Source: Clostridia bacterium
GTDB taxonomy: Bacteria > Bacillota > Clostridia > Oscillospirales > Acutalibacteraceae
DNA: 64,000 nucleotides
Assembly (NCBI GenBank): GCA_017452785.1
Contig: JAFTLT010000022.1
Coordinates: 1-64,000 of the forward strand
Direction: 5' to 3'
In this document: positions 3,187 through 56,840 of the stretch, piece by piece
Position numbering within the stretch: position 1 is the first letter of the stretch
Layout: each line of letters begins with the position of its first letter
Program-made: the position numbers and the translations under genes
The notes under the pieces: model-generated
What the model was told of the DNA's origin: nothing
Databases searched by the model: none
The model's input: the letters and a program-made list of their open reading frames with translations, nothing else

Positions 3187-3786
3187 ATGGAACAGCAAAA
3201 TGACGGCAGAAGAGTCAGGATGACAAAGATGCTTTTGAAAAGCAGTCTTATTGATATAATGAAAACTAAGTCTATACACACTATAAGCATAAAAGAAATC
3301 TGTGAGGGTGCTGACGTTAACAGAAGCACATTTTACCGCCACTATGACACTCAGTATGATCTTTATGATGATATAATTGAGGATATAGCTGCGGATATTG
3401 CTGCTATACATAATGACCCTGAGGTTAAAGATTACACAAGTATAGAGTTCCTGACCAAGGTGCTTGAATATATAGAGAATAACCGTGAAAAGTTTCTTGT
3501 TATACTCAGTGATAAGGGTAAAATAAGTCTCGGTGAGGCATTTACACGTTTCACCAACAGATTTATTGACCACGAAAGCATGAGTGATGTGGGCTTATAT
3601 GTCACTCAGTTTCTTGCTGCCGGTCTTACAAGCACTATGTGGACTTGGCTCAATAAAGAAATCCGACGCAGCCCAAGAGAGCTTGCTTCCCTTCTTTACA
3701 GCATTATAATGCACGGTCTCGGCAGAGCTATGAAATATTCTGCAAGTGTAAAGGAAGAGCTTGAGAAGAGAAGCAAAGAAAATTAG
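3187..3786 (+). CDS. TetR family regulator
   Basis: Transcription regulator of the TetR/AcrR fold, 199 residues. An N-terminal helix-turn-helix (about residues 12-58) includes ISIKEICEGADVNRSTFYRHYD, the typical TetR recognition region, followed by an all-helical ligand or dimer domain of the TetR_C type found in Clostridia (IIMHGLGRA near the end). The start at 3187 follows AAAAGGAGG; an upstream in-frame start at 3124 overlaps the promoter. Its stop TAG is part of a heptad repeat. The divergent NSS transporter and the convergent ABC exporter are possible targets, but nothing shows which. Confidence 0.88.
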   Translation: MEQQNDGRRVRMTKMLLKSSLIDIMKTKSIHTISIKEICEGADVNRSTFYRHYDTQYDLYDDIIEDIAADIAAIHNDPEVKDYTSIEFLTKVLEYIENNREKFLVILSDKGKISLGEAFTRFTNRFIDHESMSDVGLYVTQFLAAGLTSTMWTWLNKEIRRSPRELASLLYSIIMHGLGRAMKYSASVKEELEKRSKEN

Positions 3787-4047
3787 CAATTAGGAATTAG
3801 CAATTAGCAATTTCGGTCGCAGGTCTGCTTCTGCCTAGCCGTTAGTTACTACCCGCAGAGCAAAAGCTCAGAAGCTTAAAGTTTTATCAATCTTAAATAA
3901 ACGGCAGGTCACTTCCAAACGACAGTGACCTGCTTTTATAATCTGCATAGTTGGTATTTATTACTTACTCTATCTGTGGATGAAAACTTACTAATCAGTG
4001 AAAAGTGCATCCACGACTACAATTGCTAATTACTAATTGCTAATTGA
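3783..4047. repeat. GTGGTCGCA element, copy A
   Basis: Starts with AATTAGC heptads and CGGTCGCAGG, ends with CGACTACAATTG and heptads in inverse orientation. Between them are blocks shared with copies B (56588-56840) and C (25491-25740, inverted): ATCAATCTTAAATAAACGG, a GGTCACT/AGTGACC hairpin at 3903-3932 followed by TTTT, TTTATAATC, and TTGGTATTTATTAC. The element fills the whole space between two convergent genes and its heptads supply both stop codons. No coding capacity. Confidence 0.8.
3902..3937. terminator. Bidirectional terminator inside copy A
   Basis: GGCAGGTCACT pairs with AGTGACCTGC and is followed by TTTTAT. It lies between the convergent tetR-like gene and the ABC permease gene, where a terminator is expected. 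Confidence 0.7.
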
Positions 4048-5586
4048 AAGAGTGTTTCGGCAGCAAAATGCCAATACTGCGGCAACAACGATATTTACTG
4101 CACTCATAATAAAATATGCGGCAATAAAATAAAAGGGATAGAGCACAGATATGGTTACTGCTGTGAATATGCCGGGGGCGGAAAACAGAAGAATGAATAG
4201 GAAGTAAGCAATAAGTATAAGGAATTTTTTATCTGATGAGCCAAAAAGCCGCTGCAGCAGCAGGTTGACGCTTATAAACAGCAAACCGAAGCTTATTCTG
4301 CCTGCAATCATTCCGAGAGTCTCACTGATGTTGGTGTGTGCTATAAAATAAACAGGTATAAAGCAAAGTATACTCTCTGCAATGAGTGGCATAAACTCAC
4401 CTTTAATAGTGTACCACAGCTTGATGTGAGGTTTTTCGGGAATGAGATAGATATAGGGATAAGCAAGCTCCTTGCCCCATCTGCCTGCAGCTACGCCCAT
4501 TGTGAGCATATAAACATTCAGAACGAATATACCCACTGGCATATCTGAAAAAATGAAACAGCCCAAAACCGAAAAAGCAATCATAACAAGTGACATTGTG
4601 CTCAAGAGAAAGACCTTACTTCGTCTGTTTTCAATTTTATGCTTCTCGGCAATTACAGAGGCTCCGAAGCCTTTATTTATGCCGATTTTGCCCGTTTTGA
4701 CATTTCTTGGTGCATTCTCGGCAGCCTTGCCTTCTTTTCTTGCCTGAATGGCAGAATAGGAAACCTCAGTGCTCTGCAGCACGTCTTCATAATAGTCCGA
4801 ATTTATCAGCTTTATTGCAAGACGGTAAAGAAGCCAGAAGCCGATGCAGTAAGCAGCACCGCCTGCAATTTTCAGGGGCTCACCCTGAATGGCACCCTCC
4901 ACAGCAAGGGCTGTTATGCCGCTGACAGGAAAAAATCTCAGCACCATACTTCGTGAGGCGAGCACAAGATTTGCGATTGTGATGCCGCCGTCTTTATAAG
5001 CACTCAGTGCGGTGTAAGCCACAAAACATCCGACAAATATCATGCAGACCCACTTAAGTGCGGTCTTTTTTTTGTCACTGCATGAGGTCAGAGAGTAAAC
5101 AACCATAGCTGTCATCTGCGCCAGAAAAACTGTTACGCCGTAGCCTATCAGAATATAAATCAGAGCCGAAAAGCCAACGCCGTATGTGTCTCTGACGAGG
5201 GTGGACTGATAAAGAATAAAATAGCCGATGAGAAGGCTTCTGCCAAGCTGCTGAAACAGACCGAAGGACAGCACCTTGCTCTGATTAAGCGGGGCGGTGA
5301 AAATCATGTTGACATCAGCCATAGAAAACATTGATGCACCGTTATAAAAGCCGTTTTTGCTTATCATAACAAAAACTATGCTGTAAAGCAGCATCACAAT
5401 TGCATAAAGCTCATTGATGTCACGAAAGCCGTAGATATTTTCCTGCACCGCCTCGTTACCTGTTAAGGCTGTGAAAATCATAAATGCAGCGAGTATCAGA
5501 ACAAATATGAGCTTCGAGGGTGTTTTTAAAACAGAAAGTATATTGTTTTTTAACTTTCTCGTTAAAAGATAGGTCAGTGCGCTCAC
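4033..5586 (-). CDS. ABC exporter permease
   Basis: Membrane subunit of a putative ABC exporter, 517 residues, with roughly ten to twelve hydrophobic segments and a charged cytoplasmic loop in the middle (about residues 270-315). It matches my memory of the 'putative ABC exporter' family of Clostridia, which lacks well-defined substrates. The gene overlaps the ATPase gene by four bases (ATGA), so the two subunits are translationally coupled. Its last residues SISN and its TAG stop are encoded by the AATTAGC heptad repeat, hinting that the original C-terminus may have been altered. Confidence 0.8.
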   Translation of the reverse strand: MSALTYLLTRKLKNNILSVLKTPSKLIFVLILAAFMIFTALTGNEAVQENIYGFRDINELYAIVMLLYSIVFVMISKNGFYNGASMFSMADVNMIFTAPLNQSKVLSFGLFQQLGRSLLIGYFILYQSTLVRDTYGVGFSALIYILIGYGVTVFLAQMTAMVVYSLTSCSDKKKTALKWVCMIFVGCFVAYTALSAYKDGGITIANLVLASRSMVLRFFPVSGITALAVEGAIQGEPLKIAGGAAYCIGFWLLYRLAIKLINSDYYEDVLQSTEVSYSAIQARKEGKAAENAPRNVKTGKIGINKGFGASVIAEKHKIENRRSKVFLLSTMSLVMIAFSVLGCFIFSDMPVGIFVLNVYMLTMGVAAGRWGKELAYPYIYLIPEKPHIKLWYTIKGEFMPLIAESILCFIPVYFIAHTNISETLGMIAGRISFGLLFISVNLLLQRLFGSSDKKFLILIAYFLFILLFSAPGIFTAVTISVLYPFYFIAAYFIMSAVNIVVAAVLAFCCRNTLSISN

Positions 5587-6278
5587 TTCACATCACCGCT
5601 TTCGGTTATATTGAAAAAGAGCTCCTCAAGGCTGCCTGAGTTTTCACCCATTGTCTTTTTTGCCTGTACTCTGCCGCCGACCATAATATATGCCGTGTCC
5701 CAAAAATCCTCAACGCTGTCGAGCATATGCGTGCTTATGAGAACACTTGCGCCTTTTTTCTTCAGCTCGATAAAAATCTCCTTAAGCTGTTTAATGGCAT
5801 GAGGGTCAAGACCCACCATAGGTTCATCGAAAATAACAATTTCAGGCTTGTGCACAAGAGCACAGCAGATAGACAGCTTCTGCTGCATACCCTTTGAGAG
5901 CTCCTTGCCCAGCTTATCTTTTTTATCAAACAGCTCAAAGCGTCTGAGCAGCTCGTCACCGTAACCGTCGTCATCCATTTTATAGGCACGAAGAATAAAC
6001 TGAATATGTTCGCCAACGGTGAGCATATCATAAACTGCAGGCATTTCGGGAATATAGCCGAGAATACGCTTTGCTTCAACTGATTTGTTGCTGAGAGCCC
6101 CGAAGGTGATTTCACCCTTGAAGCGGAGCAGACCTGCAATACACTTGATTATTGTGCTTTTTCCTGCACCGTTGGGACCGAGCAGAACTGCTATCTCACC
6201 GCTTTTAACCTGAAAGCTTATATTATCGTTGGCAATGAGCTTGCCGTATTTTTTTGTAACATCTTTGACATTCAACAT
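5583..6278 (-). CDS. ABC transporter ATP-binding protein
   Basis: ATPase of the ABC exporter, 231 residues. Walker A GPNGAGKST is at about residues 34-42, the Q-loop near PEMPAV, the signature is the variant LSKGM, and Walker B reads IVIFDEPMVGLD followed by the switch histidine in STHML. This CcmA/BcrA-like architecture drives exporters that pair with a separate permease, here the downstream overlapping gene. A short palindrome GTGATA-TTT-TATCAC (6297-6312) lies just upstream and could be an operator; the regulator is unknown. Confidence 0.92.
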   Translation of the reverse strand: MLNVKDVTKKYGKLIANDNISFQVKSGEIAVLLGPNGAGKSTIIKCIAGLLRFKGEITFGALSNKSVEAKRILGYIPEMPAVYDMLTVGEHIQFILRAYKMDDDGYGDELLRRFELFDKKDKLGKELSKGMQQKLSICCALVHKPEIVIFDEPMVGLDPHAIKQLKEIFIELKKKGASVLISTHMLDSVEDFWDTAYIMVGGRVQAKKTMGENSGSLEELFFNITESGDVK

Positions 6279-10444: not shown

Positions 10445-10720
10445 TAGGGTGACGAATATAATCCGAACCCGCCCAAAAGCGTGAATTTTCGCATCTTTTC
10501 GGTGTTTCGGATTTGAAAGGCGGCAGCCTGTCGGCATCCTCAACACACAAAAATCCATCAAAAATTCGCACTTTTGGGTCGTCAGATTTTATGCGAGGCG
10601 GATTTTTGTTATATCAAGGCGCAAAACGCAGTAAATCCTGCCGGATTTACGAGTATTTTAACGATGAGATGGCGGAAATCCGCCCGTAAAAAACGGGTTC
10701 GGATTATATTCGCCACCCTA
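10445..10720. mobile_element. MITE-like element with 25 bp terminal inverted repeats
   Basis: GGGTGACGAATATAATCCGA at the left and its inverse at the right (CGGATTATATTCGCCACCC) continue to 25 paired bases with one mismatch, and TA sits on each outer edge. Inside, CCCAAAAGCGTGAATTTT (10471-10488) pairs with 10561-10578, GGCGGATTT (about 10596) with AAATCCGCC (about 10675), and GTAAATCC with GGATTTAC at 10631-10650. No frame encodes a transposase. TA-flanked short inverted-repeat elements are typical of passengers of IS630/mariner-type transposases. It separates the zinc-ribbon gene and recQ. Confidence 0.75.
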
Positions 10721-16836: not shown

Positions 16837-16861
16837 GTCAATTATGAAATTCATAATTGAC
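16837..16861. repeat. Perfect palindrome after relA
   Basis: GTCAATTATGAA and TTCATAATTGAC are perfect inverse arms around one base, directly after the relA stop. The arms contain AATTATGAA, the same core as the heptad repeats, so it may be a head-to-head pair of that repeat. Confidence 0.65.
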
Positions 16862-23331: not shown

Positions 23332-23577
23332 AAAGATGCCGCCTTGAGGCACCTTCTGTAAGGAAGGTGCCTCAACTAAGTTTGCCCTTACGGGCAAGTG
23401 AAGTTGTCTTTGACAGTGAAGTTAATTCGTAGTTAAGTTTGCTTCGCAAGTTTTTTGTGGCAAACTTAACTTCATATGGACTCAAAGTCCATACTTCACT
23501 GCAAGTGAAACGAGCAACTTCACTTTTGCGTCAGCAAAAACTTCACTTACACTCGCTATAAGTATAAAGGAATATTT
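23332..23577. repeat. Multi-hairpin intergenic repeat
   Basis: A dense series of inverted repeats: TTGAGGCACCTTC/GAAGGTGCCTCAA (23344-23375), GCCC ttac GGGC, GCAAGTGAAGTTG pairing with CAACTTCAC and TTTTGC near the far end, AGTTAAGTTTG with CAAACTTAACT, and ATGGACT caa AGTCCAT. The element at 53129-53225 has the same layout with altered but still complementary stems. The first hairpin may also end hup transcription, though no T run follows. Confidence 0.7.
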
Positions 23578-23817
23578 ATGAGACTTGACAAATATTTAAA
23601 GGTTTCCCGCCTTATTAAGAGAAGAACTATTGCTAATGAGGTCTGCGATGCAAAGCATGTAACCGTTAACGGCAAAATTGCAAGAGCCTCCTATGATGTT
23701 AAGGTGGGGGATATAATTGAAATTCAGATGGGTGAAAATCTGATGAAGGCTGAGGTGCTTGTTGTCACCGAGCACGCAACTAAAAACGATGCAGGCCTTA
23801 TGTATAAAATGCTGTAA
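23578..23817 (+). CDS. rqcP: S4-domain ribosome quality control protein RqcP
   Basis: 79-residue S4 RNA-binding protein of the RqcP (YabO/Hsp15) family, which stabilises peptidyl-tRNA during alanine tailing on stalled 50S subunits. MRLDKYLKVSRLIKRRTIAN is the S4 fold start and VNGKIARASYDVKVGDIIEI the second half. Its position before yabP and yabQ is the conserved Firmicutes order. A terminator follows immediately, so yabPQ probably have their own promoter. Confidence 0.92.
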   Translation: MRLDKYLKVSRLIKRRTIANEVCDAKHVTVNGKIARASYDVKVGDIIEIQMGENLMKAEVLVVTEHATKNDAGLMYKML

Positions 23818-25490: not shown

Positions 25491-25740
25491 ATTGAATGCA
25501 GAATGCAGAATTGTGGTCGCAGGATAGTTTTCACTAATAATAAAGATTGCACCCGCAAAGAAAATAAAGATTAAATGCCTACTCTGTAGATTATAAAAGT
25601 TCAGCAGGTCACTACCGATTTGGAAGTGACCTTCCTTTGATTTAAGATTGATGAAATTACCGTTTTTGAGCTTCTTCTACGCTGGAAAAGGCTTTGAGTG
25701 CGGTGGGCTATGTCGCAACCGCAATTGCTAATTTTAAAAT
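25491..25740. repeat. GTGGTCGCA element, copy C (inverted)
   Basis: Left end: GAATGCAGAATGCAGAATT then GTGGTCGCAGG; right end: GTCGCAACCGCAATTGC. Read on the minus strand it aligns with copy B: ATCAATCTTAAATCAAAGG, GGTCACTTCC and AGTGACCTGCTGAA around a hairpin, then TTTTATAATC and TTTGCGGGTGCAATCTT. It accounts for most of the 359 bases between the S1 gene and the secreted hydrolase. Confidence 0.8.
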
Positions 25741-25766
25741 TGTCTTTGGCTTTTTTTCTCTCTCTA

Positions 25767-25796
25767 TTGAAAATTATACCTGAAATGGTGTATTAT
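25767..25796 (+). promoter_or_regulatory. Promoter of secreted hydrolase
   Basis: TTGAAA, an 18-base spacer, then TATTAT, 41 bases before the start codon. Confidence 0.6.
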
Positions 25797-25837
25797 ATTT
25801 GCAGTGAAAGCAATAATATTATAAGGAGGATATTCCT

Positions 25838-26758
25838 ATGAAAAAATTTGCAGCTCTTATTATGAGTCTTATCCTTATTTTCAGCTTTGTGCCTCTTAGC
25901 CTTGCCGCAGACAGCGATAAGCCCTTTGATAACAGCAATTTCTTCACTTATGGTGATTACACAATTCACTACAGAACCTATGACAGCAGTGAAAACAAAA
26001 ATCAGATTATGCTTATTCACGGCTTCTGCCTTTCAACTGCATCCTTAGAGGGTATTGCGGCAGAGTACCAAAAAGCAGGCTATGATGTTGTGACAGTTGA
26101 CGTGCCCAATTTTGGTTATTCATCAAGAGAAACAAGTGACACTGAGTTTCTTTCAAGAGAGGAAGTCATCGGTGCACTTATGGCTGAGCTTGGCGGCACT
26201 TGGATAGTTGGCGGTCACTCAATGGGTGGCGGCATTGCAATCAACCTTGCGTGCGATTATAGTGATATAGTTACAGGCCTTGTGCTTTTTGCACCTCAGA
26301 CCTCAAATGAAGCCTCAGGCTTTATGGCAAAGTTCAGTGCATCCTGCATTGCTCAGGCTATGTATAATATGATTTTGGCTGTGGCACTTCGTATGCCCTT
26401 TATGGTCAGAATGCTTGTTGATATGAGCTTTAGTAGTAGTGAATATGCAAAGGCATATGACCTGACAAGAATCTCTGCCCCTCTTTCTCTTGAGGGTACC
26501 GGTGCAGGCATAACAATTATGACCTCACACACAAGAGGCAGCGACCTTAGCAAGCTTTCAGCTCTTGACATTCCCTGTGCTATTATAACAGCTGCCAACG
26601 ACAAGGTTGCTATGGCTGATAACCTTCAGGCAATTATTGACAATGCTCCCGAAGGCTATTACACCTATGAATTCAGTGAGGGCGGTCATATGATGATGGA
26701 ATATGCACCTGAAGCTGTGGCAGAGCATACCCTGCCCATAATCGCAAAATGCAAATGA
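25838..26758 (+). CDS. Secreted alpha/beta hydrolase
   Basis: Exported hydrolase of 306 residues. A signal peptide (MKKFAALIMSLILIFSFVPL, cleavage likely after SLAA) precedes an alpha/beta-hydrolase domain with the oxyanion HGF in LIHGFCLS, the nucleophile elbow GGHSMGGG (about residues 125-132), a later acid in ITAANDKVAM and the histidine in SEGGHMMM. An esterase or lipase activity on the cell surface is likely; substrate unknown. It has its own promoter and terminator. Confidence 0.87.
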   Translation: MKKFAALIMSLILIFSFVPLSLAADSDKPFDNSNFFTYGDYTIHYRTYDSSENKNQIMLIHGFCLSTASLEGIAAEYQKAGYDVVTVDVPNFGYSSRETSDTEFLSREEVIGALMAELGGTWIVGGHSMGGGIAINLACDYSDIVTGLVLFAPQTSNEASGFMAKFSASCIAQAMYNMILAVALRMPFMVRMLVDMSFSSSEYAKAYDLTRISAPLSLEGTGAGITIMTSHTRGSDLSKLSALDIPCAIITAANDKVAMADNLQAIIDNAPEGYYTYEFSEGGHMMMEYAPEAVAEHTLPIIAKCK

Positions 26759-26783
26759 TGTTAAATTGAAGCAAACGGTTAAA

Positions 26784-26833
26784 TCCGCTCTGTGATGTCA
26801 AAAGAAACTGACAGGCAGGGCGGAGACTTTTTT
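26784..26833 (+). terminator. Terminator after secreted hydrolase
   Basis: TCCGCTCTG pairs with CAGGGCGGA, with an inner GTCA/TGAC pair, and is followed by six T. Confidence 0.85.
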
Positions 26834-26835
26834 AT

Positions 26836-26857
26836 AATTACTAATTGTTAATTGATA
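26836..26857. repeat. Heptad-like repeat overlapping a gene start
   Basis: ATTACTAATTGTTAATTGATAG is a degenerate minus-strand copy of the AATTAGC-type heptad and overlaps the possible TTG start of the next gene. Confidence 0.5.
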
Positions 26858-27532
26858 GTTGGGGTGGTTTTAATTTTTGATATTCGTGATTATTGCTCTT
26901 TGGAGCATAGCCTTGCAGGGGACTATATTTTATCTTTCAGTGAACCGTGGCAGTGCCTTAAGGGTCTGAGGGAGTATATCATATCTTTGGGCGAAAGCCT
27001 TTGCAGAGATGAATATGACAAATACGGAAAAGATGTGTGGATACACAAAAATACTTTGATTTACCCCACGGCATTTGTCAAGGGCCCGTGCATAATAGGG
27101 CAGGGCAGTGAGGTGCGTCACGGAGCTTTCATAAGGGGCAGTGCTCTCATAGGCAGAAACTGCGTTGTCGGCAATTCAACCGAAATTAAAAACTCCATTC
27201 TCTTTGACAGGGCTCAGGTACCTCATTTCAATTATGTGGGAGACAGCATTCTCGGCTATAGAGCCCATCTTGGTGCAGGAGCTATAACATCAAATGTCAG
27301 AAGTGACAAGGGTGAGATTTTTGCTTTTTCTGGTACTCAGAGAGTCTCTACAGGTCTTAGAAAATTCGGAGCTGTTATAGGTGACGAGGTGGAAATAGGC
27401 TGTGGCAGTGTGCTGTGTCCGGGAACGGTAATAGGCAGAAAATCTATGGTTTATCCCTTAGTGCGTCTGAGGGGGACTGTGGAAAGTGACAGCATAGTAA
27501 AAGAAAACAACATCACAGTCAGGAGGGGCTGA
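26852..27532 (+). CDS. LbH nucleotidyl/acetyltransferase-like protein
   Basis: About 220-226 residues, dominated by a left-handed beta-helix of hexapeptide repeats (IYPTAFVKGPCIIGQGSEVRH and onward, about residues 70-220), resembling the C-terminal acetyltransferase half of GlmU-type sugar nucleotide enzymes. A pyrophosphorylase domain is absent. The start is uncertain: no in-frame ATG exists, the GGGGTGG site lies at 26861, and candidates are TTG 26852, GTG 26864 or ATT 26873. The next gene is glmM, four bases on, so a role in UDP-GlcNAc supply is likely. Confidence 0.75.
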   Translation: MIVGVVLIFDIRDYCSLEHSLAGDYILSFSEPWQCLKGLREYIISLGESLCRDEYDKYGKDVWIHKNTLIYPTAFVKGPCIIGQGSEVRHGAFIRGSALIGRNCVVGNSTEIKNSILFDRAQVPHFNYVGDSILGYRAHLGAGAITSNVRSDKGEIFAFSGTQRVSTGLRKFGAVIGDEVEIGCGSVLCPGTVIGRKSMVYPLVRLRGTVESDSIVKENNITVRRG

Positions 27533-27536: not shown

Positions 27537-28886
27537 ATGGCAAAATATTTCGGAACAGACGGCTTCAGAGGAGAAGCTAATGTTAATTTAACCGCTGACC
27601 ATGCTTATAAAACGGGCAGGTTTTTAGGCGCTTATTTCAAAGAAAAGCATGAAAAAGACGGTGACAGATTTCCGCCGAGGGTGGTTATCGGCAAAGACAC
27701 ACGCCGTTCAAGCTATATGCTCGAATATTGCCTTGCAGGTGGACTCACAGCCTCAGGGTGTGACTGCTATTTGCTGCATGTGACAACAACGCCCTGTGTT
27801 GCCTATATAACCAGAACCGATGAATTTGACTGCGGAATTATGATTTCTGCAAGTCATAACCCATATTATGACAACGGAATAAAGCTCATTAACTCTCAGG
27901 GCGAAAAAATGGGTGAGAATATTATTGCAAAGCTCGAAGCGTTCCTTGACGGCAAAAGCGCAGAAGTACCCTTTGCAAAGCGTGATAAGATTGCAAAAAC
28001 AGTTGACTATGTTTCAGGCAGAAACCGCTATATAGGCTATCTTATTTCCCTTGGAATGTATTCTTTCAAAGGCATGAGAATAGGTCTTGACTGTGCCAAC
28101 GGCAGTGCATGGAATATTGCAAGATGCGTTTTTGAGGCTCTGGGGGCAAGCGTCTATATGATAGGTGCCGAGCCGAACGGTACAAACATAAACTATATGA
28201 CGGGCTCAACCTATATGGATGAACTGAGTGAATTTGTGAAAGCCAAGCGTCTTGATGTAGGATTTGCCTATGACGGTGATGCTGACAGATGCCTTTGCAC
28301 TGACGAAAAAGGCAATGTTGTTGACGGTGATAAGATACTCTATATCTCAGCTAAATATATGAAAGATAAAGACCTTCTCAGCGGCAACACTGTTGTGACA
28401 ACTGTTATGTCAAATCTCGGACTTTATAAAGGACTTGATAAGCTCGGCATAGAATACATCAAAACAGATGTAGGTGACAGATTTGTTTATGAGGCAATAA
28501 AAAGCAGCGGATATAAATTGGGTGGTGAGCAGTCAGGACATATTATCTATTCAAAATATGCAACAACGGGTGACGGAATACTCACAAGCCTGATGATTAT
28601 GGAAATAATGCTGTCAACCAAAAGAAAGCTGAGTGATCTTGCCTCGGAGATGAAGACCTATCCTCAATGCCTTATAAATGTCCCTGTGGATAATAAGGCA
28701 CAAGTAATGGAGCGAAGCGATGTCAAGGATGCTCTCAGGCAGGCTCAGACACTTTTAGGCAGTGAGGGAAGAATACTTCTTCGTCCTTCGGGCACTGAAC
28801 CGATGATAAGAGTAATGGCAGAGGCAAGCAGTCAGCAGCTATGCAATCAGGTGGCTGAGATGGTGGCGCAGGCGGTCAGAAATTAG
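27537..28886 (+). CDS. glmM: Phosphoglucosamine mutase
   Basis: Interconverts glucosamine 6-phosphate and glucosamine 1-phosphate on the way to UDP-GlcNAc and peptidoglycan. 449 residues, the usual size. FGTDGFRGEAN opens the protein, the phosphoserine loop is ISASHNPYYDNGIK (about residues 100-113), the metal site YDGDADRC (about 241-248), and the phosphate-binding loop RPSGTEPMIR (about 418-427). Its stop TAG comes from an AATTAGC heptad. NagB, upstream at 6.4 kb, works on the same metabolite. Confidence 0.96.
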   Translation: MAKYFGTDGFRGEANVNLTADHAYKTGRFLGAYFKEKHEKDGDRFPPRVVIGKDTRRSSYMLEYCLAGGLTASGCDCYLLHVTTTPCVAYITRTDEFDCGIMISASHNPYYDNGIKLINSQGEKMGENIIAKLEAFLDGKSAEVPFAKRDKIAKTVDYVSGRNRYIGYLISLGMYSFKGMRIGLDCANGSAWNIARCVFEALGASVYMIGAEPNGTNINYMTGSTYMDELSEFVKAKRLDVGFAYDGDADRCLCTDEKGNVVDGDKILYISAKYMKDKDLLSGNTVVTTVMSNLGLYKGLDKLGIEYIKTDVGDRFVYEAIKSSGYKLGGEQSGHIIYSKYATTGDGILTSLMIMEIMLSTKRKLSDLASEMKTYPQCLINVPVDNKAQVMERSDVKDALRQAQTLLGSEGRILLRPSGTEPMIRVMAEASSQQLCNQVAEMVAQAVRN

Positions 28887-28994
28887 CAATGAGTAATTAG
28901 CAATTGTGGTCGCAGGTTTTCTTGCCGCTGATAAATAAGCTTATAGCCGCAAAGAGAGTTGGTAGAAGATACCAACTCTCTTTGAAAATTATTT
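28883..28994. repeat. Partial GTGGTCGCA element D with hairpin
   Basis: Starts with AATTAGC heptads and GTGGTCGCAGG, then a perfect hairpin AGAGAGTTGGTA/TACCAACTCTCT at 28956-28984 followed by TTTG. It lacks the far inverted end. It lies between convergent glmM and yifB and can terminate both. Confidence 0.7.
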
Positions 28995-44424: not shown

Positions 44425-45053
44425 TGAAACTGACATATAAAAAAGGAAAACAGGATAAAATTCACATTTCAGTCGACGGTGAGTATAGCTTTACCGTCGA
44501 CGAAGCATATTTTCTGTCTTTAGGCATTTATAACGGAAAAGAGATAGGCATAGAAGAACTGAGTGAGCTTAAGGAAAATGTAAACATAAGACGTGCCTAT
44601 AACTATGCAGTGTCGCTTCTTGCAAGGCGTGACCACAGTGAGAGAGAACTGAAAGACAAGCTCTCACTAAAAGGGTACAAAGAAGGTGCTGAAGAAGCTG
44701 TTGAAAAGCTTAAAAAGGGCGGCTATGTTGATGACAGCCGTTTTGCAAGGCTCTATGTCAGAGAATTGCAGACTCTCAAAAAGTACGGCAAAAGGCGCAT
44801 AGAGCAGGAGCTTTTCAGAAAAGGTGTTGACAGGGATATAATAAGAGAGGTTTTAGACGAAACGGAGTTTGACGAAGATGAGCTCGTCAGGCTAATTGAG
44901 CGAAAATATGCCCGTTATCTCGGTGACGAAAAGGGTGTAAAAAAGACAATTAATGCCCTTCTCAGACTTGGCTACAGCTATAGTGAAATCCGTGACGCAC
45001 TGCGGCAAATCAGTGAAAACACAGAATTGGACGATGAGGTTTTTTATGAGTAA
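44424..45053 (+). CDS. recX: RecA regulator RecX
   Basis: Modulates RecA filaments; 209 residues. Three-helix RecX repeats are visible: YNYAVSLLARRDHSERELKDKLSLKGY, then FARLYVRELQTLKKYGKRRIEQELFRKGV, then a third near INALLRLGYSYSEIRDAL. Its ATG overlaps the recA stop, so production is coupled to RecA. The rimO start lies in its last codons. Confidence 0.95.
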   Translation: MKLTYKKGKQDKIHISVDGEYSFTVDEAYFLSLGIYNGKEIGIEELSELKENVNIRRAYNYAVSLLARRDHSERELKDKLSLKGYKEGAEEAVEKLKKGGYVDDSRFARLYVRELQTLKKYGKRRIEQELFRKGVDRDIIREVLDETEFDEDELVRLIERKYARYLGDEKGVKKTINALLRLGYSYSEIRDALRQISENTELDDEVFYE

Positions 45054-46377
45054 AGTTGGAATGATATCTTTAGGTTGCCCAAAAAATCAGGTTGATGCAG
45101 AAATGCTGCTCTCACGCCTTAATGATTCTGGCTTTGAGATAGTCGGTGATGTTGAGGCTGATATTGTTATTATCAACACTTGCGGTTTTATAGGCGATGC
45201 AAAAAAAGAGGCAATTGACACTATTCTGGAAATTTGTCAGCTCAAGGACGAGGGCATTGTGGGTGCTGTTGTTGTCACAGGCTGTCTTGCTCAGCGTTAT
45301 AAAGAGGAGATAATGAAGGAAATCCCTGAGGTTGATGCAGTTGTGGGCATCGGCGGTAACATTGACATTGTGTCCGTATGTCGCGATGTGCTTAGAAATA
45401 AAAAGGTAAATTTTTTCCCGCCGAAGCTGTTACTGCCATTAGAGGGTGACAGAATGCTGACCACACCTGCGCACTATGCTTATCTTAAAATTGCAGAGGG
45501 ATGCTCCAACTGCTGCACTTACTGTGCTATACCTAAAATAAGAGGCAAATTCCGCAGCCGTGAAATGGAAAATATTATAGCCGAAGCAAAGTCTCTTGCT
45601 GCAAACGGAGTTAAAGAGCTCATTGTTGTGGCACAGGATACCACAAAATACGGCATAGATTTATACGGTGAGCTGAAGCTTTCCGAGCTTCTTCGTGAGC
45701 TTTGCAGAATAGACGGCATTGAGTGGATACGCACCCTTTACTGCTATCCTGAATCAATAACCGATGAGCTTATTGACACCATGGCAAGTGAAAGCAAAAT
45801 CTGCAAATATATTGATATACCCCTTCAGCACTGTGACGGCAGTGTGCTGGGAAGAATGAACCGTAAAGGTGACAGAGAAAGTCTCACGGCACTTATCTGT
45901 AAGCTCCGTGAGAGAATTCCCGGCATTATTATCAGAACAACCTTTATTGTGGGATTTCCCGGGGAAACAGAGAAAAGCTTCGAGAGCTTATGCGAATTCG
46001 CTGACGAAATGAAGTTTGACCGCTACGGCTGTTTTGCCTATTCTGCCGAGGAGGACACTCCGGCGGCACTGATGGAAAATCAGATAGACGAGGATATAAA
46101 AGCAGAGCGTGCAGGCATAATGAATTCTCAGCAGCAGCGCATTTTTGAGGATAAGCTTGAAGCACTTCTCGGCAAAGAGCTGACAGTTATAGTTGACGGC
46201 TTTGATGAGGAAGAAATGCTTTATTTTGGCAGAAGCTATATGGATGCTCCCGATATTGACACTGTGGTTATTATCTCAAGCGAAGAGGAGCTGACGGCAG
46301 GTCAGTTTGTCATGGGCACTGTTAAGGGCAGCCTTAACGGGGAACTCATTGTGGAAATTATGAATGAGGAATTATGA
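45046..46377 (+). CDS. rimO: Ribosomal protein S12 methylthiotransferase
   Basis: Radical SAM enzyme that methylthiolates Asp88 of ribosomal protein S12. 443 residues with the three MTTase parts: UPF0004 domain (SLGCPKNQVDAE, INTCGFI, VTGCLAQRY), radical SAM core with CSNCCTYCAIPKIRG (about residues 150-164) and a C-terminal TRAM domain. The start at MSKVGM follows GAGG. Its end, IMNEEL and TGA, is written by AATTATG-type heptads, the same ending as the GNAT protein at 56.8 kb. Confidence 0.95.
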   Translation: MSKVGMISLGCPKNQVDAEMLLSRLNDSGFEIVGDVEADIVIINTCGFIGDAKKEAIDTILEICQLKDEGIVGAVVVTGCLAQRYKEEIMKEIPEVDAVVGIGGNIDIVSVCRDVLRNKKVNFFPPKLLLPLEGDRMLTTPAHYAYLKIAEGCSNCCTYCAIPKIRGKFRSREMENIIAEAKSLAANGVKELIVVAQDTTKYGIDLYGELKLSELLRELCRIDGIEWIRTLYCYPESITDELIDTMASESKICKYIDIPLQHCDGSVLGRMNRKGDRESLTALICKLRERIPGIIIRTTFIVGFPGETEKSFESLCEFADEMKFDRYGCFAYSAEEDTPAALMENQIDEDIKAERAGIMNSQQQRIFEDKLEALLGKELTVIVDGFDEEEMLYFGRSYMDAPDIDTVVIISSEEELTAGQFVMGTVKGSLNGELIVEIMNEEL

Positions 46378-46389
46378 ATTATGAATGAG
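46366..46389. repeat. Heptad repeat at the rimO end
   Basis: GGAATTATGAATTATGAATG: units of AATTATG that contain the rimO stop codon and continue past it. Confidence 0.8.
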
Positions 46390-48604: not shown

Positions 48605-49243
48605 ATGTTTGAACGCTTAAAAGAAGATCTGCAGTGTGTCAAAGACCGTGACCCTGCAGCAAGAAGCAATTTAGAGATTATGCTGCTTTATCCCGGTTAT
48701 AAGGCAGTCAGAGCTCACAGAAGAGCCCACTGGTGCTATGAGCACAGGCTGTTTTTCCTTGCAAGAGCAATTTCACAGCACTGTGTTAAACAGACCAATA
48801 TTGAAATACATCCCGGTGCCGAAATCGGCAGACGTTTTTTCATCGACCACGGTACGGGTGTAGTTATCGGTGAGACGGCAATTATCGGTGATGACTGCAC
48901 TGTTTATCAGGGCGTCACTCTCGGCGGTACGGGTAAGGACCACGGCAAAAGACACCCGACCCTTGGCAATAATGTGCTTGTGGGTGCAGGTGCAAAGGTC
49001 CTCGGTCCCTTTAAAATAGGTGATAACTCAAATGTAGCCGCAGGCTCGGTGGTACTCAATGAAATTCCCGAAAACTGCACAGCTGTCGGCTCACCTGCAA
49101 GAGTTGTCAAGCAAAACGGTAAAAAAGTTGACAGGCTCGACCATATTCATATGCCTGACCCCATATCTCAGGAGCTTTGCCGACTTCAATATAAAATTCA
49201 GAAATTAGAAAGCAAAATAAAAGAATTGGAGGAAAATTCATGA
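48605..49243 (+). CDS. cysE: Serine O-acetyltransferase
   Basis: Makes O-acetylserine, the cysteine precursor. 212 residues: an N-terminal helical part with RDPAARSNLEIMLLYPGYKAVRAHR, then the left-handed beta-helix with IHPGAEIGRRFFIDHGTGVVIGET (catalytic His in FIDHG), GVTLGGTG and HPTLGNNVLVGAGAKVLG. The four-base overlap with cysS and the T-box upstream fit cysteine control. Confidence 0.96.
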   Translation: MFERLKEDLQCVKDRDPAARSNLEIMLLYPGYKAVRAHRRAHWCYEHRLFFLARAISQHCVKQTNIEIHPGAEIGRRFFIDHGTGVVIGETAIIGDDCTVYQGVTLGGTGKDHGKRHPTLGNNVLVGAGAKVLGPFKIGDNSNVAAGSVVLNEIPENCTAVGSPARVVKQNGKKVDRLDHIHMPDPISQELCRLQYKIQKLESKIKELEENS

Positions 49244-50640
49244 GAATTTTTAACACACTTTCAAGAGAAAAAGAGGAGCTTATCCCCATTACTCCGGGCG
49301 AATTCAAAATCTATGCCTGCGGTCCTACAGTTTATAACTTTATTCATATCGGTAACGCAAGACCTCTCTGCGTTTTTGATGTAATGCGCCGTTACCTTGA
49401 ATACAGAGGCAACAAGGTTAACTTCGTTCAGAATTTCACAGATATTGACGATAAGATTATCCGACGTGCAAATGAAGAGGGTGTAACCTTCAAGGATATC
49501 AGTGAAAAGTATATCGAAGAATTCTGGGTAGATGCCAAGGGTATGAATATTCGTGAAGCTACTACGCACCCCAAAGCAACAGAAAACATCGGTGAGATTA
49601 TCGACATCGTTTCAACACTTATTGAAAAAGGCTATGCTTACGAAGCAAACGGAGATGTTTATTTCAGCACAAAGAAATTTACAGAATACGGCAAGCTTTC
49701 ACATCAGCCTCTTGAAGACCTTGAAGCAGGTGCAAGAATCAACGTCGGTGAAGTAAAAAGAGAGCCTATGGATTTCGCTCTGTGGAAGAGTGCAAAGCCC
49801 GGTGAGCCCTATTGGGAATCACCTTGGGGTCACGGCAGACCCGGTTGGCATATTGAGTGCTCAGCTATGGTCAGACATTATCTCGGTGAAACTATCGATA
49901 TTCACTGTGGCGGTCAGGATCTCATCTTCCCTCACCACGAAAATGAAATAGCTCAGAGTGAATGCTGCAACGGTGCTGCTTTCTCAAGATACTGGATGCA
50001 CAACGGCTTTATCACTGTTGACAAGGTTAAGATGTCAAAGTCACTTGGCAACTTCTTCACAGTTCGTGATGTTGCAAATCAGTATGGCTATGAGCCCATT
50101 CGTTACCTTATGATTTCCTGCCAGTACAGAAGCCCCATCAACTACAGCTTTGATGCTATTGAGCAGTGCAAGGCTTCACTTGAAAGACTTTACACCTGCC
50201 GCAACAATATGGACTTTGCCCTTCAGAACGCAGTAGAAGAAGCAGGCGAAAAGGATGCAGAAATCATTGCTGCTATCGATGCAAAGAAAGATAAGTTCAT
50301 TGAAGCAATGGAAGACGACCTCAACACAGGTGAGGCTCTCGGTGCTGTTTTCGAGCTTGTAAGAGAAATCAACTCAAATGTAAATGACGGCGTTCAGTCC
50401 AAGGCACTCGTTGAATATGCTATCAAGGTCTTTGACGAGCTTATGGATGTTCTCGGTCTTCTTTATAACAGAAATGCTGAAAAGAGCCTTGACGACGAAA
50501 TTGAAGCTCTTATTCAGGCTCGTAACGATGCAAGAAAGGCTAAAAATTGGGCAGAGGCTGACCGCATCCGTGACGAACTCAAAGCACAGGGCATTGTGCT
50601 TGAGGATACACCTCAGGGCGTTAAGTGGCACAGAGCGTAA
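49240..50640 (+). CDS. cysS: Cysteinyl-tRNA synthetase
   Basis: Charges tRNA-Cys. 466 residues, class I: ACGPTVYNFIHIGNARP carries the HIGH-like HIGN motif (about residues 32-35 in context), zinc ligands C, C, H, E lie in the core (GWHIECSAM, HHENEIAQSE), and KMSKSLGNFFTV is the KMSKS loop (about 265). Translationally coupled to cysE and expected target of the cysteine T-box. Confidence 0.97.
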   Translation: MRIFNTLSREKEELIPITPGEFKIYACGPTVYNFIHIGNARPLCVFDVMRRYLEYRGNKVNFVQNFTDIDDKIIRRANEEGVTFKDISEKYIEEFWVDAKGMNIREATTHPKATENIGEIIDIVSTLIEKGYAYEANGDVYFSTKKFTEYGKLSHQPLEDLEAGARINVGEVKREPMDFALWKSAKPGEPYWESPWGHGRPGWHIECSAMVRHYLGETIDIHCGGQDLIFPHHENEIAQSECCNGAAFSRYWMHNGFITVDKVKMSKSLGNFFTVRDVANQYGYEPIRYLMISCQYRSPINYSFDAIEQCKASLERLYTCRNNMDFALQNAVEEAGEKDAEIIAAIDAKKDKFIEAMEDDLNTGEALGAVFELVREINSNVNDGVQSKALVEYAIKVFDELMDVLGLLYNRNAEKSLDDEIEALIQARNDARKAKNWAEADRIRDELKAQGIVLEDTPQGVKWHRA

Positions 50641-50663
50641 GCTAATTATGAATTATGAATCGC
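50641..50663. repeat. Heptad repeat after cysS
   Basis: AATTATGAATTATGAATCGC directly after the cysS stop, followed by an imperfect inverted repeat GCGGGGGAGAC/GTCTTTTCCCGC to about 50692. Confidence 0.7.
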
Positions 50664-52362: not shown

Positions 52363-53031
52363 GTGAGTATTAAGGATGAGCTTAAAGAGTACCTTTTATC
52401 TCAGGGTGCAAGCGATGTGGGCTTTTGCAAAATCCCCGACGGAGATTTTGGTGAGTGCAGATATGGCATAAGCATAATTGTGCGTCTGTCTGGTGATATT
52501 GTGGATGAAATAGGTGCTGAACCGACTCACACCTATTTCAATCATTACAGAAGTGTAAATGCTTTTATTGATTCACTTCTTCTTAAGGCAGGTCTTTTCC
52601 TTCAGAATAAAGGCTACAGATATATTACCGTTGCCGCTTCACAAAGCATAAATAAAGACGGATGGAACTATAAGGGCAGATATTCTCATAAAAAGGTAGC
52701 CACCCTTGCAGGGCTTGGCTCTATAGGCAAAAGCTCAATGTTTCTTCATAAAGACTACGGAGCAAATGTGCGTCTTGGCAGCATTTTCACAGATTGTGAG
52801 TTTGATGTCAGTGATGTTGTACCGCTCGACCTTTGCAATGCCTGTGACAAATGTGTTAAGGCTTGTCCCAGCGGAGCAATATCGGGAAATGTGTGGTATG
52901 AAGGCTGCAAAAGAGAGTATATGTTTGACCCTGAAAAGTGCAGCAATTATATGAAAAATCACTTTAAACACATCGGCAGGGGAGCAGTATGCGGCATCTG
53001 CATGAAGGTGTGTCCTTATGGAAAATTATGA
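52363..53031 (+). CDS. QueG-like 4Fe-4S protein
   Basis: Iron-sulfur protein of the epoxyqueuosine reductase-like group, 222 residues, shorter than true QueG (about 340-380) and without the HEAT repeats. Two clusters are shown by CNACDKCVKACPSGA and CGICMKVCPYGK. The N-terminal half has GLGSIGKSSMFLHKDYGANVRLGSIFT, similar to the cobalamin-binding part of QueG. GTG start with GAGGTG. Its last two residues and stop come from the AATTATG heptad (GKL, TGA). Confidence 0.8.
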   Translation: MSIKDELKEYLLSQGASDVGFCKIPDGDFGECRYGISIIVRLSGDIVDEIGAEPTHTYFNHYRSVNAFIDSLLLKAGLFLQNKGYRYITVAASQSINKDGWNYKGRYSHKKVATLAGLGSIGKSSMFLHKDYGANVRLGSIFTDCEFDVSDVVPLDLCNACDKCVKACPSGAISGNVWYEGCKREYMFDPEKCSNYMKNHFKHIGRGAVCGICMKVCPYGKL

Positions 53032-53045
53032 ATTATGAATTATCG
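53023..53045. repeat. Heptad repeat at the queG-like gene end
   Basis: AATTATGAATTATGAATTAT overlaps the stop codon and is followed by CGTGGCCGCAG, a close relative of the GTGGTCGCAGG end of the dispersed element. Confidence 0.75.
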
Positions 53046-53396: not shown

Positions 53397-53397
53397 A

Positions 53398-54628: not shown

Positions 54629-54630
54629 TT

Positions 54631-54685
54631 AAAAGGGGACCGGTTCTCTGTGCATATTACACAGATGCAACCTGCCCTTTTAAAT
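54631..54685 (+). terminator. Nested hairpin after GH43 gene
   Basis: AAAAGGG pairs with CCCTTTT, inside it CCGGTT with AACC, and inside that CTGTG with CACAG. Probably a terminator with an unusual stacked stem. Confidence 0.6.
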
Positions 54686-54746
54686 GTAATGTTATCAATG
54701 ACCTGATAAAAAACTCTTAATATTTATTCAAAATTCCCGTAAACTA

Positions 54747-54775
54747 TTGATAAAATTTGAGTAATGGTATAAAAT
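54747..54775 (+). promoter_or_regulatory. Promoter of lipase-like gene
   Basis: TTGATA, a 17-base spacer, then TAAAAT, 30 bases before the start. Confidence 0.65.
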
Positions 54776-54805
54776 GGTTGCATAAAAATTAAAGGAGAAA
54801 TCAAA

Positions 54806-56587
54806 ATGAAAAAAATCAAACAAACCATTTGTCTCATTCTTGCGGTGATTATGGTTATGTCATCGTGTATGCTCGTGTCATCTGCTGCAGATGAAAAGAC
54901 TGCTTATGTGGCTGACTATGACACAGAAACTCCCGTAGTTATTGTTCACGGTATGAGCCAGAATAACACCTATCTCGTTGACGAAAACGGCAACTGGGCA
55001 AAAGATGATGACGGCAAATATATTACTGCATGGCCTCTTAAGATAGAGATTTCAGCACTGCTTAAAAATGCTCTGCTTCCTCTTCTCGGTGCTATCGTTA
55101 CAAGAAAAGACTGTGGTCTTGCTGCAGCTCTTGATAAGTCAGCACGTGAGGCTCTTTGGGTTATTGAAAAGGATAATAAGGGTAACTATGTTAAAAATAT
55201 TGAAGTGCCCTGCTATGAGTGCCCCATGAGTGAGCTCAGCCCCGAAGTGAAGGAAGAATACTATAAATTCCTTCCTATTCAGGAGCTCAGCCAGATTGTC
55301 GGTGAAGATAATGTATTCTACTTCGGTTATGATTCACTGGGTGATGTTAATGCAATTACTGAGCATCTCAACTACTACATTCATAATGTTGTTATGCCTC
55401 AGACAGGTGCAAAGCAGGTTAAAATCTGCTCGATCAGCCTTGGTGGTACCATCGCAATCAAATATCTTGAAGATTATCCCGAAGATTATAATCTTATAAA
55501 GAAGGTTGTTTTTGTTGAACCTGCACTTGACGGCTCAAACATTATCGGTGACCTTTTCATTGATAACCTCAGCTTCTATTCAGATGAAGATCTTTATGAA
55601 AATGTGCTTGTAGGTCTTTTTGGTGAAACTCCCGTTGCTTACCTTCTTAATATGGTGCTTCGCATTCTTCCCAGAGATGTGCTTATGAATGCTCTTAGAG
55701 GTCTTGCAACAGGTCTTGTTGACCATGCACTGCGTCCTTCAACAATTCTTTGGGCTCTTTGTCCCACTGCTTATTATGAAGAAGCGAGAGCTAAGTGGCT
55801 TATGGATGAGGAGTATAAGGAAATCAGAGAACAGGTTGACGAATTCATGGCTGCAAGAGCAAACTTCAAGGATAACCTCTTTGAGCTTATGGAAACAGGC
55901 TGTGTTGTTGCTGACGTTGCTTGCTATGATGTTAACCTCTTCCCCGTCTGTAAGGACTATAAGACAACAAACGCTGACAGAGTTATCCATGCCGCTTCAA
56001 CCACAATGGGCGCAACCTTTGCAGATCTTGGCACAACTCTCGGTGAAAACTACAAGGCAGCCGGCACATACTGCAGCAACCCTGCTCATAACCACCTTTC
56101 ACCCGACGGCGTTGTTGACGCAACAACAGGTTACATTCCCTGCTCAACATGGTACTTCAAGGGTCAGGCACATGAGCTTCTTCCTCACAATGACGTTGCT
56201 CTTAAGCTTGCTATACGCATTATGACAGACAACAATATGGTTGATGTTTATTCAAACCCCGAAGCATATCCTCAGTTTAACAACGGCAGACTTACACGTG
56301 ATATCAATGCAAATCTTCTGGCTTGGGATGAAGCAGACAAGAGTAAGGTTTCAGCTGAAGATAAGGCTGCAATTGAAGCAGCTATAGCTGATGTAAATGC
56401 ACTTCTCAACGAAACTGTTGTTGATGTTGAGGCTTGGGCTGCAGCTGAAGAAAACCTTGAAAACGCTCTTGCAGCAGCAGGCGTTATTGAAGATCCCGAT
56501 CCTACTGTTATTGATAACACTCTCACAAGCATTCTCAGAAGCATGAACAGAGGTGTAAACAAGGTTTACGGCGCATTCCAGAAATAA
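54806..56587 (+). CDS. Secreted lipase-like alpha/beta hydrolase
   Basis: Exported protein of 593 residues with a signal peptide (KQTICLILAVIMVMSSCMLV, cleavage near SSAA). The N-terminal part has the VVIVHGMSQNN oxyanion loop and the nucleophile elbow CSISLGGT (about residues 212-219), where the usual first glycine is serine (SxSxGG). A later histidine lies in GQAHELLPHNDV. The last 120 residues are helical and alanine rich (DKAAIEAAIADVNALLNE). A lipase or esterase at the surface is likely; substrate unknown. Confidence 0.8.
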   Translation: MKKIKQTICLILAVIMVMSSCMLVSSAADEKTAYVADYDTETPVVIVHGMSQNNTYLVDENGNWAKDDDGKYITAWPLKIEISALLKNALLPLLGAIVTRKDCGLAAALDKSAREALWVIEKDNKGNYVKNIEVPCYECPMSELSPEVKEEYYKFLPIQELSQIVGEDNVFYFGYDSLGDVNAITEHLNYYIHNVVMPQTGAKQVKICSISLGGTIAIKYLEDYPEDYNLIKKVVFVEPALDGSNIIGDLFIDNLSFYSDEDLYENVLVGLFGETPVAYLLNMVLRILPRDVLMNALRGLATGLVDHALRPSTILWALCPTAYYEEARAKWLMDEEYKEIREQVDEFMAARANFKDNLFELMETGCVVADVACYDVNLFPVCKDYKTTNADRVIHAASTTMGATFADLGTTLGENYKAAGTYCSNPAHNHLSPDGVVDATTGYIPCSTWYFKGQAHELLPHNDVALKLAIRIMTDNNMVDVYSNPEAYPQFNNGRLTRDINANLLAWDEADKSKVSAEDKAAIEAAIADVNALLNETVVDVEAWAAAEENLENALAAAGVIEDPDPTVIDNTLTSILRSMNRGVNKVYGAFQK

Positions 56588-56840
56588 TTGGGAATTAGCA
56601 ATGAGCAATTGTGGTTGCGGATATACAGCTGACTAACAGCAAGGCTCTATCCGTAGAGCAAAAGCTTGAAGATTATCAATCTTAAATAAACGGCAGGTCA
56701 CTACCGAATCGGTAGTGACCTGCTGAATTTTATAATCGAGAGAGTTGATATTTATTCTTTACTTTTTTGCGAGTGAAATCTTACTTATAAGCAAATAGTG
56801 AATTGCGACCACAATTCATAATTCATCATTCATAATTAAC
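56588..56840. repeat. GTGGTCGCA element, copy B
   Basis: Starts GGAATTAGCAATGAGCAATT and GTGGTTGCGG, ends TGCGACCACAATT and AATTATG-type heptads in inverse orientation. Central hairpin GGTCACTACCG/CGGTAGTGACC at 56692-56722, blocks ATCAATCTTAAATAAACGG and GAGAGTTGATATTTATT shared with copy A. It fills the space between the convergent lipase and GNAT genes. Confidence 0.85.
56690..56724. terminator. Hairpin inside copy B
   Basis: GCAGGTCACTACCG pairs with CGGTAGTGACCTGC, a perfect 14-base stem around ATC-like loop sequence, between convergent genes. Confidence 0.7.

What the first reader, a model, noticed from the sequence alone, without database searches (positions are those of the whole stretch)
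3783..56840. Heptad repeats supply stop codons and C-terminal tails of at least six genes
Tandem 7-base units (AATTAGC, AATTATG, GAATGCA types) run across gene ends. The TAG of the tetR-like gene and glmM and the SISN-TAG end of the ABC permease come from AATTAGC units; the TGA of rimO, the queG-like gene and the GNAT gene come from AATTATG units, giving IMNEEL, GKL and IMNDEL tails. Two unrelated proteins thus end in nearly the same residues because of DNA repeats. This looks like a mobile or expanding short repeat that settles at stop codons.
Basis: seen in the sequence. Interest (0 to 1): 0.8.

Follow-up and report, generated by a model that had tools for sequence, protein, structure and literature searches.

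The report
Heptad-capped mobile elements at gene ends
The seven-base repeats at these gene ends look like the two inverted ends of a small movable DNA element, of the same kind that carries the little-understood "23S rRNA intervening sequence protein" gene in several bacterial phyla, and they create new stop codons simply where such an element has landed at the end of a gene.

Summary
In detail: all six named stop codons lie inside heptad arrays. The heptads are not free microsatellites. Most look like inverted end caps of a dispersed element, commonly 160-560 bp; window 3760-4060 gives 66 BLAST matches in its own genome, many of them cap-only or counted on both strands. Between sister species, whole elements differ in presence, arrays differ by whole units, and cap types differ. 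Some copies elsewhere carry a PF05635 gene (23S rRNA intervening-sequence protein, IVP). Of 92 IVP loci from five phyla and two phages, 54 have period-7 arrays on both sides within 250 bp, against 0 of 29 control S21 loci. The unit differs from locus to locus, but left and right arrays tend to match as inverted copies. Two IVP genes lie in 23S rRNA and one in RNase P RNA. So the window probably holds gene-less relatives of IVP/IVS elements. AATTAGC and AATTATG arrays contain stops in every frame, and insertions near gene ends are over-represented (26 of 92 stop boundaries overlapped, 4 of 56 starts). How they move, and why seven, is not shown.

The parts
3781..4046 (.). Complete element without a recognised gene between convergent TetR-like and ABC exporter genes; left cap 3781-3812, right cap 4021-4046 (inverted)
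   Evidence: TRF; matches in own genome; caps pair when folded, MFE -86.2 against 200 shuffles -52.4 +- 4.2
3781..3812 (+). Left cap, AATTAGC type; supplies TAG of TetR-like ORF 3124-3786
4021..4046 (-). Right cap, inverted AATTAGC type; supplies TAG of ABC exporter ORF 4033-5586
3028..3052 (.). Lone AATTAGC/AATTAGT array; the sister genome has a longer element with heptad caps at the same place (L216 1170-1504)
16840..16858 (.). Palindrome AATTATGAAATTCATAATT, like two caps without a body, where L009 has a full heptad-capped element
25494..25733 (.). Element with GAATGCA left cap and a short AATTAGC-type right end; absent at this place in L009, which has a terminator-like sequence there
26835..26861 (.). 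Degenerate AATTACT/AATTGTT array between ORFs; no sister sequence found for comparison
28878..28977 (+). Cap plus partial body; supplies TAG of glmM-like ORF 27537-28886
46356..46386 (+). AATTATG/AATGAGG array at the end of RimO ORF 44953-46377; shared with the sister genome at the same length
50644..50660 (+). AATTATG array 3 nt after ORF 49240-50640; two units longer in the sister genome
53024..53043 (+). AATTATG array supplying TGA of the QueG-like ORF 52363-53031; one unit shorter in the sister genome
56586..56837 (.). Element between ORF 54806-56587 (own TAA stop just before the cap) and the GNAT ORF 56816-57412; AATTAGC/AATGAGC left cap 56593-56610, AATTATG-type right cap 56810-56837 supplies TGA of GNAT

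Best explanation
The heptad arrays are the two inverted end caps of a dispersed mobile element. The copies in this window carry no protein gene that I recognised (MITE-like). Some copies elsewhere in the genome, one with the same AATTAGC caps, carry a PF05635 gene (23S rRNA intervening-sequence protein, IVP / four-helix bundle), the gene known from 23S rRNA intervening sequences (IVS). Shown by comparison: presence and absence between sister species, changes by whole heptads, cap sequences that differ between genomes and between elements while the period stays 7 in most, and inverted matching of the caps. Inferred: the caps are selected to pair with each other as an RNA (or DNA) hairpin, so that an element is tolerated at the end of a gene or in a loop of a structural RNA; slippage in steps of seven and copying between the arms make and change the arrays; the IVP or a host enzyme helps in moving. 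Stop codons inside caps are a by-product: AATTAGC and AATTATG arrays have a stop in all frames, and insertions survive mainly at 3' ends.
For: Inverted pairing: 22 neighbour pairs in +- order against 1 in -+ in 848 kb of G000 (with 7 ++ and 2 --); 17 against 2 in 302 kb of G127. Gene-bearing copy with the same AATTAGC caps at G000 C56:19952-21168, whose two ends match the window element at 78-80%; 607-bp IVP element in L160. IVP loci: 54 of 92 with lag-7 arrays on both sides, 13 on one; at other lags from 5 to 15 at most 2 of 92 on both sides except 14 (36 of 92); S21 control 0 of 29 on both, 1 on one. Nearest left unit equals the inverted right unit in 22 of 57 pairs against 0.6% of cross-locus comparisons; 46 distinct left units. 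After merging genes at least 85% alike, 47 of 84 clusters have a two-sided member. IVP in 23S rRNA (L262 with arrays on both sides, L270 on one) and RNase P RNA (L273, both). Insertion differences and unit changes against G127. Cap turnover: AAAATGC type 125.6 per Mb in G127 against 10.6 in G000 (sampled stretches). Folding: caps pair, z -8.0 (200 shuffles) and -5.5 (20 shuffles).
Against: No movement was observed and no target duplication defined. The window elements hold no recognised IVP gene, and G000 has only 7 IVP matches against many heptad elements, so IVP may be a passenger. 25 of 92 IVP loci have no lag-7 array at the chosen cut-off: some have 8- or 11-base units or units of a core plus a small hairpin (read by eye), some nothing that I recognised (L256, L257, L265, L274); 0 of 2 phage loci had period-7 arrays. 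In 4 of 57 pairs the nearest units match in direct orientation instead. The genome-level link of IVP presence with heptads is weak: 13 of 35 neighbourhood loci from IVP+ genomes against 1 of 15 from IVP- (Fisher p 0.039), lag-8 arrays show a similar split (7 against 0), and the IVP- genome of L049 has clear cap pairs. At the GNAT site the bodies in the two species are not closer (75%) than paralogous bodies (78-85%), so shared ancestry of that insertion is unproven.
Confidence: 0.75

Rival explanations
1. The heptad pairs are TIR-like ends of an ordinary MITE family moved by an unrelated DNA transposase; the IVP gene is one of several passengers that recombine between caps. (Partly compatible with the best explanation, which leaves the role of IVP open, so the odds overlap.)
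For: Most copies have no IVP; cap types can differ between the two ends of one element; the C56 copy also carries an HTH gene.
Against: IVP genes in at least five phyla sit between arrays with locus-specific units that mostly match as inverted copies; a TIR bound by one transposase should keep its sequence, not only its period.
Confidence: 0.25
2. Free heptad microsatellites expand by polymerase slippage and are tolerated at stop codons (the first reader's view, and the slippage idea for bacterial heptads cited in PMC4692102 and PMC4679880).
For: Unit-number differences of exactly 7 and 14 nt between sister species; long arrays beside IVP genes on plasmids, such as L219, L220 and L222.
Against: Inverted pairing around a related body, presence and absence of whole elements, and the tie to one gene family.
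Confidence: 0.07
3. The elements are host regulatory hairpins (terminators or mRNA-end protectors, in the manner of BOX or REP sequences) kept at 3' ends by selection; spread is incidental.
For: Strong folding; excess near stops and in convergent gaps, 23 of 74 against 73 of 457 gaps.
Against: Sites differ between sister species and cap sequence turns over; the position excess also follows from selection against insertions elsewhere.
Confidence: 0.12

Closest known systems
23S rRNA intervening sequences (IVS) with an S23p/IVP ORF, as in Coxiella burnetii (PMC4990558, passages read)
   Same: IVP gene between inverted terminal repeats that form a long stem (28 bp there); three tandem heptamers before the ORF, number differing between strains, RNase III site at the first repeat; called selfish, once proposed to be mobile. 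L262 and L270 here are IVP genes inside 23S rRNA.
   Different: Here mostly outside rRNA, at ends of protein genes, inside defence operons on plasmids and once in RNase P RNA; the window copies lack the gene.
Heptanucleotide STRR and GGGAATC-type repeats of cyanobacteria and Xanthomonas (PMC4692102, passages read)
   Same: Intergenic heptads over-represented in the genome; convergent (inverted) pairs noted in Xanthomonas.
   Different: That paper, in the passages read, treats them as G-quadruplex SSRs; IVP genes or element bodies do not appear in those passages.
TAACTGA repeats of Beggiatoaceae (PMC4679880, passages read)
   Same: Heptads, stops in all forward frames, 13 ORFs with overlap of the stop, mobility considered.
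   Different: Mostly direct repeats before start codons; a term search of the text for S23 and four helix found nothing.
REPIN / MITE-type miniature elements (PMC3116915, search listing and abstract start only)
   Same: Small, dispersed, intergenic (features partly recalled).
   Different: Ends here are tandem 7-mers whose sequence is free to vary.
Avd protein of diversity-generating retroelements (PMC10053308, passages read)
   Same: That paper reports PF05635 as resembling Avd (4DWL, 2GSC).
   Different: No reverse transcriptase was sought beside these elements.

Membership tests
IVS / IVP (PF05635) element | Encodes IVP between inverted repeats | tested here: not met
   The PF05635 search of the own genome has no match on the window's contig C30; gene-bearing copies, one with the same caps, are elsewhere in the genome. 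So the window copies share ends with such elements but are at most non-autonomous relatives.
IVS / IVP (PF05635) element | Ends form a stem | tested here: met
   Caps pair in predicted folds (for the window copy, for L160); in L273 they continue a stem of RNase P RNA
IVS / IVP (PF05635) element | Insertion in 23S rRNA | tested here: not met
   Window copies lie between protein genes; L262 and L270 do lie in 23S rRNA
IVS / IVP (PF05635) element | Excision of the RNA by RNase III | not testable with these tools
   Needs RNA data
MITE | Short, dispersed, no recognised ORF, terminal inverted repeats | tested here: met
MITE | Defined target-site duplication and partner transposase | tested here: inconclusive
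   Site comparisons with one sister genome showed no consistent duplication by eye; no transposase search was made
Simple microsatellite | Array alone changes, no linked body | tested here: not met
   Many arrays pair around related bodies; some lone arrays exist (3028, 46356, 50644)

The most novel reading that the evidence does not exclude
IVP (S23p) genes define a widespread class of mobile elements with sequence-free, period-7, self-complementary ends; the long-known excess of heptanucleotide repeats in bacterial genomes, the 23S rRNA intervening sequences and the repeats inside cyanobacterial RNase P RNA are all traces of it, and IVP takes part in making the seven-base arrays.
Probability: 0.35. 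Interest if true: 0.88.

Novelty: new variant of a known kind. Interest (0 to 1): 0.74.

Why it matters
It would join three separate puzzles: why bacterial simple repeats favour a unit of seven, what rRNA intervening sequences and their protein are, and why unrelated genes share odd C-termini. It could also explain why IVP genes turn up beside CRISPR and other defence genes: a 2023 survey names 23S rRNA IVP in the legend of a figure on CRISPR-linked proteins (PMC10910872, that passage only), and here IVP genes with heptad arrays sit between cas2 and cas1, hsdS and hsdR, and drmD and pglX, as insertions would.

Tried and rejected
Considered a chance effect of AT richness: rejected by lag and reversed-pattern controls. 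Considered a target duplication of 7 bp repeated by insertion: rejected as a simple model because the two caps are inverted, not direct. Alignment of the 26835 and 28878 sites with the sister genome gave nothing in the one stretch tried, L307. Rfam scans: L159-L178 (20 loci) had no IVP inside a structural RNA (tRNAs and one Gut-1 RNA lie nearby); 20 of the 30 phylum loci, chosen by me, gave the three cases; the other 54 of 94 IVP loci were not scanned. Rows dropped before counts: L168 and L176 (gene not located by my tblastn; both have arrays) from 94 IVP loci; L292 from 30 S21 loci, 27 arrays of class 'other' of 134, and of 86 elements 8 inside ORF calls and 4 without two usable neighbours. 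The span 25494-26861 wrongly joins an element to another array; I reset it by hand. IVP loci from the genome search are the best-scoring ones, not a random draw. Relative orientation of bodies between species rests on BLAST matches; global alignments hardly differ between strands. Paper searches on a link of IVP genes and heptad repeats (open PMC papers only) showed in their listings none beyond the Coxiella IVS paper.
Full report
What is there. The window lies on a 101,552-base contig of a 2.44-Mb draft genome in 74 contigs whose named relatives are mostly Oscillospiraceae/Clostridia metagenome assemblies from animal guts. Heptad arrays lie at 3028-3052, 3781-3812, 4021-4046, 25494-25511, 26835-26861, 28878-28905, 46356-46386, 50644-50660, 53024-53043 and 56810-56837.

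The arrays are ends of something. At 3781-4046 a left array of AATTAGC units is matched by the same units inverted at the right, with a body of about 208 bp between. BLAST of window 3760-4060 gives 66 matches in the genome; many are short cap matches and a cap can match on both strands, so this is not a count of elements. The same plan holds at 25494-25733 and 56586-56837, with a different unit at each end. In 848 kb of the genome (the window and 40 stretches; contigs were picked from those seen, so density may be raised) there are 134 arrays at the looser cut-off, 107 of them in six named unit classes; neighbours within 1.5 kb are in cap order +- 22 times, ++ 7, -- 2 and -+ once; in 302 kb of the sister G127, +- 17, -- 2, -+ 2, ++ 1. 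The 22 spans run from 69 to 1368 bp, 19 of them from 164 to 556; the longest wrongly joins the 25494 element to the array at 26835. Folded as RNA, the 3781-4046 element closes with its caps (-86.2 kcal/mol; shuffles -52.4 +- 4.2).

Comparison with the sister species G127. This is very likely isolate RGIG1937, since its contig C84 has the same length as the contig of L009 and matches the same window stretch. DNA identity is about 82-87%. Site by site: 3028: lone array here, an element with caps there. 3781: capped sequence in both, split there over two contigs, with different heptads (AATTAGC here, AAAATGC/AAAGTGC there) and, by BLAST strand, opposite orientation, though global alignments hardly separate the strands; C-termini KRSKEN* and RNTLSISN* here, KRNMNNQ* and RNVLQETK* there. 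16836: a bare palindrome here, an element there; 23331: a different repeat (units of GTGAAGT plus small hairpins) here, a heptad element there; 25494: element here, none there. RimO: array of the same length, tail IMNEEL* here, VMNKEL* there; 50644: two units longer there; 53024: one unit shorter there, GKL* in both; GNAT site: element in both, caps of GGAGTTA type there. So whole elements differ in presence, arrays differ by whole units, and cap sequences differ at the same place. At the GNAT site the bodies are 75% alike, against 78-85% for two paralogous window bodies, so I cannot tell an inherited insertion with exchanged caps from two insertions at one place.

The gene. One capped element of this genome, C56:19952-21168, with AATTAGC caps like those of the window copy, carries a gene of PF05635, 23S rRNA-intervening sequence protein (E 2.1e-29), and an HTH gene. 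Of 7 PF05635 matches in the genome, none on the window's contig, 1 has period-7 arrays within 250 bp on both sides, 3 on one side (C56, whose left cap is farther off, and two genes cut at contig starts), and 3 have none but show, on one or both sides, arrays of a short core plus mini-hairpins. In 20 other genomes of the family there are 33 matches in 10 genomes; at the looser cut-off 15 of 28 located loci are two-sided, 6 one-sided. On plasmids there are 25 records, from Cyanobacteriota, Bacteroidota, Spirochaetota, Chloroflexota and Bacillota, 24 of them two-sided; phages 2 records, neither; of 299 phylum genomes 51 have a match over the cut-off, and of the 30 best loci 17 are two-sided, 3 one-sided.

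Numbers. With 92 of 94 fetched IVP loci and score 10 or more, 54 have lag-7 arrays on both sides, 13 on one, 25 on neither; other lags from 5 to 15: both sides in 0-2, except lag 14 (36; harmonic). Control: ribosomal S21 genes from the same phylum sample, 0 of 29 on both sides, 1 on one. Array density falls from 31% of bases within 100 bp of the plasmid IVP genes to 0.4% beyond 700 bp. Of 57 two-sided loci (cut-off 8), the nearest left unit equals the inverted right unit, rotation free, in 22 and is one letter off in 10; between loci identity occurs in 0.6%; direct identity in 4 of 57. There are 46 distinct left units. So many elements have their own heptad, held in common by the two ends. Merging near-identical genes leaves 84 clusters, 47 with a two-sided member. 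At genome level the link is weak: 13 of 35 neighbourhood loci from IVP+ genomes hold arrays against 1 of 15 IVP- (p 0.039; lag 8 gives 7 arrays against 0; 50 of the 80 genomes were examined, each by one locus of 7-22 kb).

Structural RNAs. Among 20 of the 30 phylum loci scanned with Rfam, L262 and L270 lie inside 23S rRNA and L273 inside RNase P RNA. In L273 the insert of some 430 nt sits in the apical loop of one stem, with heptads continuing the stem; I name this P12 from recall of the RNase P structure. In L262 it follows about position 1218 of the LSU model, which I take to be helix 45 from recall, the classic IVS place. L270 has a period-7 array on one side only. The Coxiella IVS paper (PMC4990558, passages read) reports three tandem heptamers before the S23p ORF, differing in number between strains, at the RNase III site, and a 28-bp stem. 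STRR sequences inside cyanobacterial RNase P RNA are the subject of a paper by Vioque (1997), of which I saw only the title in a reference list.

Stops. AATTAGC and AATTATG arrays hit a stop in every frame on either strand; GAATGCA and AAAATGC arrays hit none. With crude ORF calls, elements or arrays overlap 26 of 92 stop boundaries and 4 of 56 start boundaries; within 5 nt, 39 of 92 against 20.7 +- 2.9 under uniform placement, and 6 of 56 against 7.6 +- 2.3 for starts; 23 of 74 lie between convergent genes against 73 of 457 gaps. Part of this excess is made by the insertion itself, since a cap that reaches into a gene's last codons brings the new stop. Selection against insertions elsewhere may be enough to explain it.

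How it works (inferred). Caps free in sequence but matched to each other and kept in inverted order point to selection on pairing, not on a protein-binding sequence. A paired cap lets an element sit in an RNA loop or behind a gene with little harm. Unit steps point to slippage; likeness of the two ends, to copying between arms. Whether IVP moves the element, shapes the arrays or rides along is open. Novelty: the known kind is the IVS; new, as far as I could search, are the caps as a general mark of IVP genes in several phyla, the gene-less dispersed relatives, the RNase P insertion with its gene, and the account of the stop codons. I found none of this joined in the listings of the open papers searched, which leave out most subscription journals.

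Noticed in passing
window 23350-23578; L161, L162, L163, L182, L187, L190, L192: A second cap style: a 7-8 base core (GTGAAGT, TGAATTG, TGATATC, TGAAATC) alternating with small variable hairpins, also beside PF05635 genes; in the window it occupies a site where the sister species has a heptad element.
   Followed up: partly
L218, L234, L235, L236, L238, L239, L240, L241: IVP genes with heptad arrays lie inside or beside plasmid defence or modification genes (hsdS/hsdR, cas2/cas1, cas1, drmD/pglX, drmD/MmeI, DUF1156/Swt1).
   Followed up: no
window 10448-10720: A palindromic insertion of about 280 bp with inverted ends (GGGTGACGAATATAATCCGAACCCG) is absent in L009, where the flanks lie next to each other: probably another miniature element.
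   Followed up: no
window 390-469, 581-605, 708-757: Arrays with period 11 or 8 (CATCTTATTAG, ATCTTACC); two IVP loci, L269 and L272, also have period-11 arrays.
   Followed up: no
L247, L249, L252: IVP genes beside units that look 8 bases long rather than 7 (read by eye).
   Followed up: partly
L262 424-453: A second heptad array inside the same 23S rRNA gene, away from the IVP insert.
   Followed up: no
G000 C16:1 and C38:1 (L164, L165): Two contigs begin inside near-identical IVP genes, so assembly seems to break at this repeat and copy numbers may be undercounted.
   Followed up: no
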